DNA of 64,000 nucleotides. Source: Auraticoccus cholistanensis (GTDB taxonomy: Bacteria > Actinomycetota > Actinomycetes > Propionibacteriales > Propionibacteriaceae). The translations under genes and the position numbers were made by a program. Below the pieces are notes generated by a model, which saw nothing but the letters and a program-made list of their open reading frames with translations, made no database searches and was not told the origin of the DNA. Location of the stretch: contig NZ_WPCU01000003.1 in assembly GCF_009742705.1 (NCBI RefSeq), positions 199,262 to 263,261 on the forward strand, read 5' to 3'. Shown here piece by piece: positions 33,569 through 37,427 of the stretch. Position 1 is the stretch's first letter. The number at the start of each line of letters is the position of its first letter.

Positions 33569-34906
33569 ATGAGCACGTCCACGCACCCCTCCAGCCCTGC
33601 CACCACCTCTCCGGGGCGCGTCGAGGCCCCCCTGGTGCTCACCACCGAGCCGCCGCGACCGCTCGGCTTCTGGGACCAGTTCGCCACCTGGGCCAACCTC
33701 GGCATCTCGCTGTTCGGCCCGCTGACCGGCGCGCTGGTCGTCGCCACCACCGGCTCGGTGGCCAGCGGTCTGCTCGCGGTCGTGGTCGGGTGCGTGCTCG
33801 GCAGCGCCCTGCTCGCCTGCGCGGCCGTGTTCGGCTCCCGCACCGGCGCCCCGGCGATGGTGGCGCTGCGGGGGCTGTTCGGCCGGCGGGGCTCGGTGGC
33901 GCCCACGGTGCTCAACATCGGGCAGAACGTGGGCTGGGCCACGATGGAGATCATCGTCATCTCGACCGCGGCGGCGCTCGTGCTCGGCGACGGCTGGCGG
34001 GTGCCGGTGGCCGTGCTGGCCGGTGCGGCCGCCACCTGGATGGCGGTCCGCCCGCTGGGCAGCGTCCGGCTGCTGCGCAAGGTGATGGTGTGGCTGGTGC
34101 TGGCGGCCTCGGTGCTGCTCTACGTCCAGGTGCTGCTGCAGCCGAGCCGACCTATCGACCAGTCCGGGGTGCTCGGCTTCTGGCCGGCGGTCGACATCGC
34201 CGTCGCCGGGGTGGTCTCCTTCGCCCCGCTCGCCGCCGACTACTCCCGCCACTCCCGCTCCGGCCGTGACGCCTTCCTCGGCGCCGGCCTGGGCTACGGG
34301 CTGGCCGCGGTGGCCTACTACAGCCTCGGCGTGGTGGCCATCTCCCGGGTCGGCGGGGACGACCTCATCGCCGCGCTGATCGCCCTGCCGGCCGGCTGGA
34401 TCGCGCTGACCGTGCTGCTGGTGGACGAGGTCGACGAGGCCTTCGCCAACGTCTACTCCACCACCATGTCGGTGCAGAACCTCTTCCCCGACCTGGACCG
34501 GCGCTGGGTGGCGCTCGGGGTCGGCGGGCTGGCCACGCTGGTCGCCTGCCTGCTCGACCTCAGCCGCTACCAGTCGTTCCTGTACCTGATCGGCTCGGTC
34601 TTCGTGCCGCTGTTCGCCGTGGCCGCCGCCGACTTCTTCCTGGTCTCGCGAGGCCGCTGGGACGTGTCGGCCTCCGCCCGGCTGCGGCTGGCCCCGCTGC
34701 TCGCGTGGCTGTGCGGGTTCGTCACCTACCAGCTGATCGCCCCGGGCACCGTGCCGGGGTGGTCGACGGCGTGGGCGGCGCTCGCCGCGGCCGTCGGCTT
34801 CTCCGCCCCCAGCTGGCTCGGCTCGTCGGTGGCGGCGATCCTCGTCGGGGTGGTGGCGATGTGGGTGCTGGGTCGCGCGGGGCAGCGGCTGCGTCGGCTG
34901 CGCTGA
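33569..34906 (+). CDS. cytX: CytX, likely hydroxymethylpyrimidine transporter
   Basis: Membrane transporter of the NCS1 (purine-cytosine permease) family, 445 residues with about 12 TM helices. The CytX branch is defined by its thiamin link: a TPP riboswitch ends at its ribosome binding site (GTAGGGAGGATCC ATG). Family-like segments are GFWDQFATWANLGISLFGPLTGALV near the N-terminus and FAPLAADYSRHSRSGRDAFLG in the middle. It probably imports HMP or a related pyrimidine for thiamin salvage, functionally linked to tenA at 7071. Confidence 0.93.
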   Translation: MSTSTHPSSPATTSPGRVEAPLVLTTEPPRPLGFWDQFATWANLGISLFGPLTGALVVATTGSVASGLLAVVVGCVLGSALLACAAVFGSRTGAPAMVALRGLFGRRGSVAPTVLNIGQNVGWATMEIIVISTAAALVLGDGWRVPVAVLAGAAATWMAVRPLGSVRLLRKVMVWLVLAASVLLYVQVLLQPSRPIDQSGVLGFWPAVDIAVAGVVSFAPLAADYSRHSRSGRDAFLGAGLGYGLAAVAYYSLGVVAISRVGGDDLIAALIALPAGWIALTVLLVDEVDEAFANVYSTTMSVQNLFPDLDRRWVALGVGGLATLVACLLDLSRYQSFLYLIGSVFVPLFAVAAADFFLVSRGRWDVSASARLRLAPLLAWLCGFVTYQLIAPGTVPGWSTAWAALAAAVGFSAPSWLGSSVAAILVGVVAMWVLGRAGQRLRRLR

Positions 34907-34946
34907 ACCGTCGCCCTCGCCCCGGGGTTCTGTCAGACTGCTGGCC

Positions 34947-35750
34947 ATGACGCGGACGTCCGACATCGAGGTCATCGCGCACCGTGGCTTCTCCGCCCTG
35001 CACCCCGAGTCCACCCGCGCCGCCTACCGCGCCGCGATCGAGCTGGCCCGGCGGACCCGGCACCCGGTCGAGCTGGAGGCCGACGTCCACTTCAGCGCCG
35101 ACGACCAGCTGGTGGTGCTGCACGACCTGGGCCTGCGCCGCACCGGCGGACGTCCTGACCTGGCCGAGACGCTGACGGTGGCGCAGCTGAAGAAGGTCGA
35201 CTTCGGACGCTGGAAGGTCAGCGTGGCCACCCCGGAGCAGCGCGAGCTCATCACCTTCGCCGAGCTGCTGGAGATGGTGGTGGAGGCCCGGGACGAGGGC
35301 GTGCCGGTGGGGCTCGCCGTGGAGACCAAGCACCCCACCCGGCGGGGCACCGAGGTGGACCGGCGGGCGCTGCAGCAGCTGGCCGAGCTGGGCTGGACAG
35401 AGCCCGGCTCACCGGTGCGGATGATCAGCTTCAACCCCGACGCGGTGACCCTGGTCGGGACCCTGGCGCCGGGGCTGCGGCGGTCGCTGCTGGTGGAGAA
35501 GGAGCTCGGCGTGTGGTCCGACGGCCACCTGCCCGACGGGGTCGACACCGTCGGCGTGGACCACCGGCTGGCCCGCCGCAACCTGGACTGGGTGGACCGG
35601 CTGCTGTCCCGCGGCCACCACCTGCACCTGTGGACCGTCAACGACGCCGACGAGATGGCGTACTGGCTGGACCGCGGCGCCACCGGCCTGACCACCGACC
35701 ACCCCGACCGCGCCCTGGCCGTGGTGCACGGCGGCGGCCACGTCCTCTGA
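34947..35750 (+). CDS. Glycerophosphodiester phosphodiesterase family protein
   Basis: A 267-residue TIM-barrel GDPD. The N-terminal HRG motif (VIAHRGFSALHPEST), the metal-binding ELEADVHFSADDQLVVLHD and the later AVETKHP are the expected active-site elements; WTVNDADEM and GLTTDHPDRA close the domain. It hydrolyses glycerophosphodiesters to glycerol-3-phosphate and an alcohol. No signal peptide, so cytoplasmic. CAGACT lies 7 bases before the ATG (leaderless type). Confidence 0.92.
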   Translation: MTRTSDIEVIAHRGFSALHPESTRAAYRAAIELARRTRHPVELEADVHFSADDQLVVLHDLGLRRTGGRPDLAETLTVAQLKKVDFGRWKVSVATPEQRELITFAELLEMVVEARDEGVPVGLAVETKHPTRRGTEVDRRALQQLAELGWTEPGSPVRMISFNPDAVTLVGTLAPGLRRSLLVEKELGVWSDGHLPDGVDTVGVDHRLARRNLDWVDRLLSRGHHLHLWTVNDADEMAYWLDRGATGLTTDHPDRALAVVHGGGHVL

Positions 35751-35824
35751 CGCAGCCCGGCCCTGAGTCGCACGTCCCGGCTGAGGGGGTGCGTCCGGGT
35801 GGGGTGGCCGGCCCGTCCTCTGCC

Positions 35825-36004
35825 CCGCTTCACAGCCGTCCGGTGGGGTTCACAGCCGCTGCAGCGGCTGTGGGGCGCGGGTTGTGGCTGTGAAGCTGCG
35901 GCTGGGCGGTCGTGGTGGGCGTCTGCGGACCGCTTCACAGCCGTGCGGGGGGGTTCACAGCCGCTGCAGCGGCTGTGAGGCGCAGGTTTTCGGCTGTGGA
36001 GGTG
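35825..36004. repeat. Duplicated palindromic element between GDPD and arcA
   Basis: Two related copies (about 35825-35897 and 35930-36004, 105 bases apart). Each contains the perfect 22-bp palindrome CACAGCCGCTGCAGCGGCTG+TG (35851-35872 and 35956-35977). In copy 1 this is nested inside an outer inverted pair CTTCACAGCC (35828-35837) / GGCTGTGAAG (35886-35895); copy 2 keeps the same plan with changes. The 299-base gap between the convergent genes holds no gene. It may act as a double terminator or be a REP-like element. Confidence 0.85.
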
Positions 36005-36049
36005 CGTCCAGGCGCAGGTTGCGCGGTGGAGCCGCGGGAGGGCCGGGCG

Positions 36050-37249
36050 TCAGAGCGGGTCGCGGGCGATCGGGCAGGACATGCACCGGGGCCCGCCGCG
36101 GCCGGAGCCCAGCTCGGAGCCGCGGATGGCCAGCACCTCGATGCCGGACGCCTCCAGCCGCGCGTTGGTCTCGGTGTTGCGCTCGTAGGCCACGGCGACC
36201 TTCGGCGCCAGCGCCAGGGTGTTGTTGCCGTCGTCCCACTGCTCCCGCTCGGCGGTGACCGGGTCCAGCCCGGTGTCGATCACCCGCAGCTCGGGGATGC
36301 CCATCGCCTCGGCGGCCGCGTCGAGGAAGTGCAGCGGCTCGCCGACGTCCAGGCCGCCGGCCCCGGCGCGCACGACCCGGGCCGACAGCCGGTGGGCGAT
36401 GTTGGGGTACATCACCACCGCGTCGACGTCGACCATCGTCACCACGGTGTCCAGGTGCATGGTCGCCCGCTCCTGGTCAACCGGGACGACCACCAGGGTG
36501 TGGGCCAGGTCCTGGTCGAACACGGTCCGCGCCAGCCGCTCCGCGCCCGCGGGTGTGGTCCGCTGCCCGACGCCGATGGCCAGCACGCCGTCGGCCAGCG
36601 CCAGCACGTCGCCGCCCTCCACCCGCTCGCGGTCCCAGCCGTAGAGGGGGTCGGTGCCGGCGAAGCGCGGGTGGAAGGTGTAGATCAGCTCCGTCAGCTG
36701 GGTCTCCCGGCTGCGGGCCGGCATCGCCAGCGAGGTGACCACCGGCCGCTCGCCGATCCAGACGCTGGAGTCGCGGGTGAACAGCAGGTTGGGCAGCGGG
36801 TCGATGACGAAGTCGTCCTCGGCCATCAGCGCCGTCACCAGCGTCCGCTGACCGGCCGTCTCGTCGTTGCGCAGGCCGGCGACCAGCACCTCGGCCAGCT
36901 CCTCGGCCGCCAGGTCGGCCAGGTGCCGGCGCAGCCAGCCCCGCAGCTGCTCGCCCAGCCGGAGGTCGCGGCAGGTCAGCTCGACCGCCTGCTCCCGGGC
37001 CGCGGGCAGCTGCAGCGTCTCGGCCAGCAGGTCGGCCAGCAGCAGCACCTCGACCCCGCGCCCGACCAGCAGCTGGGCGAAGGCGTCGTGCTCCTCCTGC
37101 GCGCGGTCCACCCACGGGATGCCGTCGAAGAGCAGGGCGTCGTTGTTGCGTGGCGTCAGCCGCCGCAGCTCGTTCCCGGGCCGGTGCAGCAGCACGGTGC
37201 GCAGCCGTCCCACCTCGGAGTGCACGCCCAGCGGGTGGCTCGTCGTCAT
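36050..37249 (-). CDS. arcA: Arginine deiminase
   Basis: Converts arginine to citrulline and ammonia; a source of ATP (with arcBC) and acid resistance. The 399-residue protein has the N-terminal [22 protein letters not shown], the [10 protein letters not shown] substrate segment, [10 protein letters not shown] and the C-terminal catalytic Cys at about 389 in [13 protein letters not shown]. No arcB, arcC or arcD gene lies nearby, so the pathway is either scattered or ArcA acts alone. ATG has TAGAGT 6 bases upstream. Confidence 0.95.
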
Positions 37250-37255
37250 GGCGTG

Positions 37256-37261
37256 ACTCTA
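37256..37261 (-). promoter_or_regulatory. -10 hexamer TAGAGT of arcA (leaderless)
   Basis: TAGAGT on the minus strand lies 6 bases before the arcA ATG at 37249, with no ribosome binding site between. Confidence 0.5.
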
Positions 37262-37427
37262 GGACCTCCCGCGGCGCGCGCCGGAGTCCCGTACCGGCCG
37301 CCGCGGGAGCGGGGTCGCCATGCCGGGACGAGTGCCGTCGCGGGGGGTGCGACCCGTTAGCCTTGCTCTGGCGTCGTCGGGTCCGGGCGGTGTCCGGCCA
37401 GGAAGTGCGGACGTCAGGGAGGCTCGC

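What the first reader, a model, noticed from the sequence alone, without database searches (positions are those of the whole stretch)
35825..36004. Two copies of a nested palindromic element with a perfect 22-bp palindrome
Each copy has an inner 22-bp palindrome inside an outer inverted pair with the same core (CACAGCC/GGCTGTG), and the copies are 105 bases apart between convergent genes. The core is used four times per unit. This looks like a REP/BIME-type repeat or a site for a dimeric DNA-binding protein, not a simple terminator.
Basis: partly seen in the sequence, partly recalled or inferred. Interest (0 to 1): 0.58.

Follow-up and report, generated by a model that had tools for sequence, protein, structure and literature searches.

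The report
Species-private converging intergenic repeat arrays
The two nested palindromes belong to a family of 23 rigidly spaced repeat units at 16 intergenic places in this bacterium, not found as arrays in any other genome searched, and they look more like docking arrays for an unknown DNA-binding protein than like classic REP repeats or simple terminators.

Summary
The palindrome is the core of an array of CACAGCC boxes that converge on it from both sides, in 20-bp steps beside the core (43 of 44 scorable), then 22, 20, 19 or 24. The genome (3.80 Mb, 17 contigs) has 23 cores at 16 intergenic places. The one other genus member held, and all 390 other order genomes sampled, lack the pattern; a scan of 84,980 species genomes gave 5 stray cores, no array. 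Boxes differ from consensus at 4 of 637 positions; spacers are 46% identical between places. In three duplicated pairs spacers changed at 8 of 78 positions, boxes at 0 of 77. Opposite spacers and native halves pair no better than permuted ones. No RAYT family match; no T tail at any array. Best reading: phased sites for an unidentified DNA-binding protein that nucleates at the core. REP-like mobile DNA or a two-way terminator remain possible. Protein and function are unknown.

The parts
35829..35837 (+). unit 1, outer left box TTCACAGCC
   Evidence: its CACAGCC starts 20 bp before the core
35851..35872 (.). unit 1, palindromic core CACAGCCGCTGCAGCGGCTGTG (its left box with the TT before it is 35849-35857)
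35886..35894 (-). unit 1, outer right box (GGCTGTGAA), 20 bp after the core's right box
35934..35942 (+). unit 2, outer left box TTCACAGCC
35956..35977 (.). unit 2, palindromic core (its left box with the TT before it is 35954-35962)
35992..35998 (-). unit 2, outer right box (GGCTGTG), 21 bp after the core's right box: the only one of 44 scorable inner steps in the genome that is not 20
34947..35750 (+). neighbour: GDPD-family phosphodiesterase gene
   Evidence: PF03009, 4.6e-30
36050..37249 (-). neighbour: arginine deiminase gene
   Evidence: PF02274, 2.5e-109

Best explanation
A chromosomal array of sequence-specific binding sites. A DNA-binding protein private to this lineage, or with a specificity private to it (not identified), recognises CACAGCC boxes, usually preceded by two pyrimidines and followed by G. 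Two molecules meet head-to-head at the 22-bp core. Further molecules add outward on both sides on roughly one face of the helix, about two turns (20-22 bp) apart, to make a symmetric nucleoprotein element. Such elements sit at 16 places between genes, mostly close to a stop codon, where they could mark, insulate or bridge chromosome sites or influence transcription from either side. Shown: the architecture, dispersal, conserved boxes with drifting spacers, and no sign of selected strand pairing outside the boxes. Inferred: that a protein binds, that binding is cooperative, and what it is for.
For: Rigid phasing: 43 of 44 scorable inner steps are 20 bp; outer steps are 22 (16), 20 (6), 19 (5) and 24 (3). 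Box numbers are often unequal on the two sides (e.g. 7 left and 2 right), which a hairpin does not need. In the four inner boxes of the units 4 of 637 positions differ from consensus, while 46 spacers are 46% identical between places (34% if shuffled). In three duplicated pairs, 0 of 77 box and 0 of 24 core-centre positions changed against 8 of 78 spacer positions (Fisher p = 0.001); over a longer stretch of one of these pairs it is 0 of 42 box against 10 of 66 other positions. Spacer pairing is no better than permuted (102 vs mean 118 ungapped; p = 0.24 gapped), the pyrimidines before the boxes do not covary (p = 0.76 core, 0.34 outer), and native halves fold no better than swapped ones (permutation p 0.99 and 0.86 for 21 units). 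The core-centre asymmetry does not follow transcription direction in the tandem places.
Against: No binding protein was found. Three of the neighbour genes do carry DNA-binding domains (TetR_N by L070, NrtR winged helix by L068, an HTH on an EPSP-synthase-like protein by L073), but segments of all three match the sister genome (49%, 75% and 90% identity), which has no array. So the protein or its specificity must be new in this lineage. Spacers are not fully random (46% vs 34%), which ancient copying would also give. Among the five neighbouring pairs not used in the test, one (L067) has 2 core-box changes and two (L061, L067) have core-centre changes. Units can form strong hairpins on either strand, and two (L061 second unit, L066) rank 1st to 4th of about 20 for native pairing. 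The fold comparison does not exclude a hairpin made by the boxes alone.
Confidence: 0.52

Rival explanations
1. A REP/BIME-like (or REPIN-like) mobile palindromic repeat spread by a transposase acting in trans, then grown by local tandem duplication.
For: Dispersed, found in one species only, intergenic, and nearer the upstream stop codon in the 8 scorable tandem places. At least three places hold tandem duplications. REP families can be species-specific and lie mostly downstream of coding regions (abstract of PMC3733652). Two of 11 orthologous gaps are shorter in the sister species by about 270 and 520 bp (L073, L069), as an insertion would give.
Against: No Y1_Tnp match in the genome; no GTAG or CGTC within 6 bp of any core; 23 copies, against about six hundred REPs in E. 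coli K12 (PMC8266576 passage). With boxes masked the wider regions gave 46 hits between places, fewer than the 96-217 of four sets of mostly coding control regions, and the short array stretches gave 0, though these are short and heavily masked. With up to 3 mismatches over 42 bp no further or decayed unit appears; the 3 rows with 3 mismatches are shifted registers inside known arrays. In the other 9 of 11 orthologous gaps the sister's gap is as long or longer, or its edge is unclear.
Confidence: 0.2
2. A two-way transcription terminator or mRNA 3'-end stabiliser working as nested RNA hairpins.
For: Strong predicted RNA folds on both strands (window units -35 to -48 kcal/mol, z -5.5 to -6.8). 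Tandem-gap arrays lie nearer the upstream stop codon in 8 of 8 scorable places, though one (62 vs 66 bp) is nearly a tie. One array lies about 70 bp beyond the 3' end of rnpB.
Against: No T tail: 0 terminator-like sites in 34900-37300, and at the 16 arrays no 8-base window within 40 bases past either end has more than 3 T, and after the cores none has more than 4. No pairing selection seen: native halves fold no better than swapped halves and variable positions do not covary. Unequal box numbers on the two sides. No enrichment in convergent gaps: 4 of 15, with convergent gaps 21% of sampled intergenic bases. Two places are divergent.
Confidence: 0.2
3. Operators of a widespread actinobacterial regulator such as MtrA, whose reported motif GTCACAgcg resembles the box.
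For: TTCACAGCC shares TCACAGC with GTCACAgcg (motif quoted in PMC2945938, passages read).
Against: MtrA is widespread in Actinobacteria (recalled), yet the arrays occur in 1 of 391 order genomes. Arrays in tandem gaps lie nearer the upstream stop codon than the downstream start. I did not search this genome for MtrA.
Confidence: 0.05

Closest known systems
REP / BIME / REPIN elements with RAYT (TnpA-REP)
   Same: Short palindromic intergenic repeats, dispersed, species-specific in some families, often clustered and downstream of genes.
   Different: No Y1_Tnp match, no GTAG/CGTC tag, low copy number, direct-repeat arms with fixed 20/22-bp steps, and no detected homology between places outside the boxes.
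Iteron arrays with an inverted operator (e.g. RepE of F)
   Same: Direct repeats plus an inverted pair of sites: RepE binds iterons, and its dimer binds inverted repeats (PMC13028717 passages). The roughly 20-bp step is like plasmid iterons (recalled).
   Different: Sixteen chromosomal places scattered over the genome, no initiator among the neighbours' Pfam hits; no match to the window's array in plasmid or phage records.
BldC-type cooperative binding to direct repeats
   Same: An actinobacterial DNA-binding protein that multimerises on direct repeats (title and start of abstract of PMC5859096 in a search listing).
   Different: Here arrays converge on a palindrome; box and step are different (BldC motif recalled), and tandem-gap arrays lie nearer the upstream stop than the next start.
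Nucleoid-occlusion or terminus site families (Noc, SlmA, MatP; recalled)
   Same: About a score of palindromic sites around the chromosome.
   Different: Approximate positions projected on the sister genome are not skewed from dnaA (16 places, KS p = 0.39), and the sites are multi-box.

Membership tests
REP/BIME (RAYT-linked) | Palindrome of 20-50 nt, intergenic, repeated in the genome | tested here: met
   22-bp core, 23 copies at 16 intergenic places
REP/BIME (RAYT-linked) | GTAG (or CGTC) tag beside the palindrome | tested here: not met
   No tag within 6 bp of any of 23 cores
REP/BIME (RAYT-linked) | Cognate Y1 transposase (RAYT) in the genome | tested here: not met
   PF01797: 0 matches in G000; the control search rang in 5 of 14 known genomes. 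CGTC REPs also apparently lack a dedicated transposase (abstract), so absence alone does not exclude every REP class.
REP/BIME (RAYT-linked) | High copy number (hundreds to thousands) | tested here: not met
   23 cores
Intrinsic terminator | GC hairpin followed by a T run | tested here: not met
   0 such sites in 34900-37300; no T tail at any of the 16 arrays or after the cores
Intrinsic terminator | Transcripts end at the element | not testable with these tools
   No RNA data
Protein-binding site array | Conserved boxes at fixed helical phase, variable spacers | tested here: met
Protein-binding site array | A protein that binds the boxes | not testable with these tools
   No candidate identified
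Iteron plasmid origin | Replication initiator gene beside the iterons | tested here: inconclusive
   None among the Pfam hits of the 31 neighbour genes scanned, 2 of which had no hit; the genome was not searched for initiator families

The most novel reading that the evidence does not exclude
A lineage-private chromosome-marking system: an unknown protein nucleates as a dimer on a palindromic core and extends outward as a phased polymer over up to 7 boxes per side at about 16 chromosomal places. Both the protein's specificity and the sites arose since the split from the only other genus member held here, or were lost there.
Probability: 0.25. Interest if true: 0.72.

Novelty: new variant of a known kind. 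Interest (0 to 1): 0.45.

Why it matters
Dispersed bacterial palindromes are usually treated as REP-like mobile DNA or terminators. Here the boxes are conserved while what lies between them drifts, no paired strand seems to be selected, and no array was found outside one species. That points to a private binding system that spread over a whole chromosome in one lineage, a process rarely caught. One pull-down with a 62-bp probe could name the protein.

Tried and rejected
Unique gap element: rejected. RAYT-linked REP: the transposase family was sought and not found. Known RNA family: in 16 stretches of about 3 kb only rnpB and a tRNA reach gathering, neither over an array; near the window copy only sub-threshold hits that do not overlap it. 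Plasmid or phage source: no match to the window array in plasmids or phages, none to the core or box-core patterns in viral contigs. Terminus- or origin-biased placement: not seen (approximate positions typed, four or five with only one flanking gene found, L072 ambiguous because its two flanks lie far apart in G005). An analogous array with another box in the sister species: 11 orthologous gaps located, seven displayed plus the window gap. One G005 gap holds a local repeat (GTGGCGAC type); its 24-bp part recurs at one other place with 3 mismatches, so it is not a parallel family. I did not search the rest of G005 for arrays with other boxes. MtrA as binder: unlikely (see rivals). A dif-like recombinase site was considered on geometry alone (11-6-11; recalled) and not tested. 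The literature search for four box and core strings found 0 papers (whole-word match; strings in figures or supplements would be missed); two other literature searches brought nothing on such arrays.

Caveats: gene calls are my own codon-bias calls, checked with Pfam for 31 neighbour genes. The three duplicated pairs in the Fisher test were chosen from eight for high spacer identity; the window pair was left out because a 1-bp shift on its right side inflates mismatches; the other four are in the Against line. In the 637-position count one right box was scored with that 1-bp shift and one box cut by a contig end was dropped. One contig (C6) ends inside an array, so copies may be missing. The genus has only two genomes here, and the order and family searches were samples.

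Full report
What is there. The window copy is two units of a four-box element, CACAGCC-13-CACAGCC-8-GGCTGTG-13-GGCTGTG (the last spacer of unit 2 is 14), with a perfect 22-bp palindrome in the middle. Chance is excluded: none of 100 shuffles gave a core within 3 mismatches.

It is a genome-wide family. A core search with up to 3 mismatches finds 23 cores in the 3.80-Mb, 17-contig genome (reversed control 1 per strand). The direct-repeat pattern (two boxes 17-24 bp apart) gives 48 + 32 matches against 2 + 1 in the reversed control; by my reading of the list 75 of these 80 fall in the arrays. The cores lie at 16 places, with 127 exact boxes within about 200 bp of them. Allowing 3 mismatches over a 42-bp pattern found no further place.

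Anatomy. Boxes on the left point right, boxes on the right point left, and all converge on the core. Units have 1 to 7 left boxes and 1 to 4 right boxes by exact match, core included; one single-box side has a mismatched outer box and the other is cut by a contig end. The step beside the core is 20 bp in 43 of 44 scorable cases; the one exception, 21, is unit 2 of the window. Outer steps are 22 (16), 20 (6), 19 (5) and 24 (3). The two bases before a core box are TT, CT or TC in 44 of 46 cases. The most frequent core centres are GCTGCAAC and its complement GTTGCAGC (7 of 23 and 6 of 23 if only cores with both boxes exact or nearly so are read from the list, one further GTTGCAGC having a changed box), so the perfect palindrome of the window is a minority form.

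Setting. None of the 16 arrays lies inside the conserved part of a gene, in a 286-kb sample where intergenic DNA is 11%. At one place (L069) my gene call ran through the array because that FAD-dependent oxidoreductase appears frameshifted near its end; the stop corresponding to the sister's lies 27 bp before the array. Of 15 places with both neighbours, 4 are convergent, 9 tandem and 2 divergent; by intergenic bases 21%, 55% and 24% would be expected, so there is no clear convergent enrichment. In the 8 scorable tandem places the array lies nearer the upstream gene's stop, though once by only 4 bp and next to weak gene calls (L065). One array follows rnpB by about 70 bp. The 31 neighbours scanned are mixed: enzymes, transport, DNA repair (RecR, a DinB-type polymerase, spore photoproduct lyase), a few regulators, two without a hit.

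Distribution. The box-box-core pattern is in 1 of 391 sampled order genomes, the window's own. The looser core pattern is in 4 of 197 sampled family genomes: the own one and 3 with a single match and no array. The 84,980 species genomes gave 5 contigs with a near-full core, none with an array; records of this genome may be left out of that collection. Viral contigs, plasmids and phages gave nothing. The only other genus member held, G005, is one contig of 4.46 Mb and has none. Its orthologue of the window gap carries a TauE/SafE gene instead. In 11 located orthologous gaps the sister's is clearly shorter in two (L073, L069) and as long, longer or unclear in nine.

Selection. Inner boxes are near-invariant (4 mismatches in 637 positions), spacers 46% identical between places against 34% after shuffling, so the spacers have a weak pattern of their own. 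With boxes masked, the short array stretches share no detectable similarity between places, and the wider regions give 46 hits against 96-217 in four control sets, mostly coding. In three duplicated pairs the changes fall only in spacers (8 of 78 against 0 of 77 box and 0 of 24 core-centre positions). So copies are either maintained box by box or are old copies whose boxes alone are held.

Pairing. Single units can fold strongly, but that follows from inverted boxes. Three tests look for selected pairing and find none: opposite spacers match less than permuted (102 vs 118; gapped p = 0.24); native halves fold less stably than swapped halves (-40.0 vs -42.6 and -40.6 vs -41.8 kcal/mol); the variable pyrimidines do not covary. 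Two units go the other way and pair very well. The asymmetric core centre is not oriented with transcription in the tandem places. No T tail follows the arrays or cores; the most is 4 T in 8 bases, after the window cores.

Interpretation. Phase, conservation and lack of pairing selection point to sites read as double-stranded DNA by a protein. The converging layout suggests a head-to-head pair at the core with outward extension, much as iteron proteins or BldC occupy repeats. The species-only distribution argues against an ancient regulator. Three neighbours encode DNA-binding domains, but their homologues exist in the array-free sister, so none is a good candidate. The REP reading keeps the location and species-specificity but loses the tag, the transposase and the copy number. 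The terminator reading keeps the stop-codon bias but loses the T run, the pairing and the convergent enrichment. Function is open.

Noticed in passing
L069:7076-8902 (G000 C9): FAD-dependent oxidoreductase gene appears frameshifted near its C-terminal end compared with the sister species, so its reading frame runs on into the array; an assembly error is not excluded.
   Followed up: partly
L064 end (G000 C6:124640-124924): Contig C6 ends inside an array of at least 14 boxes, so arrays may break assemblies and copies may be missed.
   Followed up: no
L087:1578-1864 (G005): In the sister species the NrtR/DinB gap holds its own repeat of about 97 bp in two copies (GTGGCGAC motif), nearly private to that gap.
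   Followed up: yes
L068 upstream of dinB, and the same place in L087 (G005): A conserved AATCGAACAC..TGTGCGAC-like stretch upstream of dinB resembles an SOS (LexA) box (recalled motif).
   Followed up: no
L062:7994-8089: ARAGORN's tRNA-Leu call lies inside the Rfam rnpB match and is probably false.
   Followed up: partly
all 16 places: Base skew turns from C-rich to G-rich across the array: in the 60 bp beside the outermost cores (boxes included) the left side is C-rich in 15 of 16 and the right side G-rich in 16 of 16 (means -0.33 and +0.36). The window's left side is the exception.
   Followed up: no
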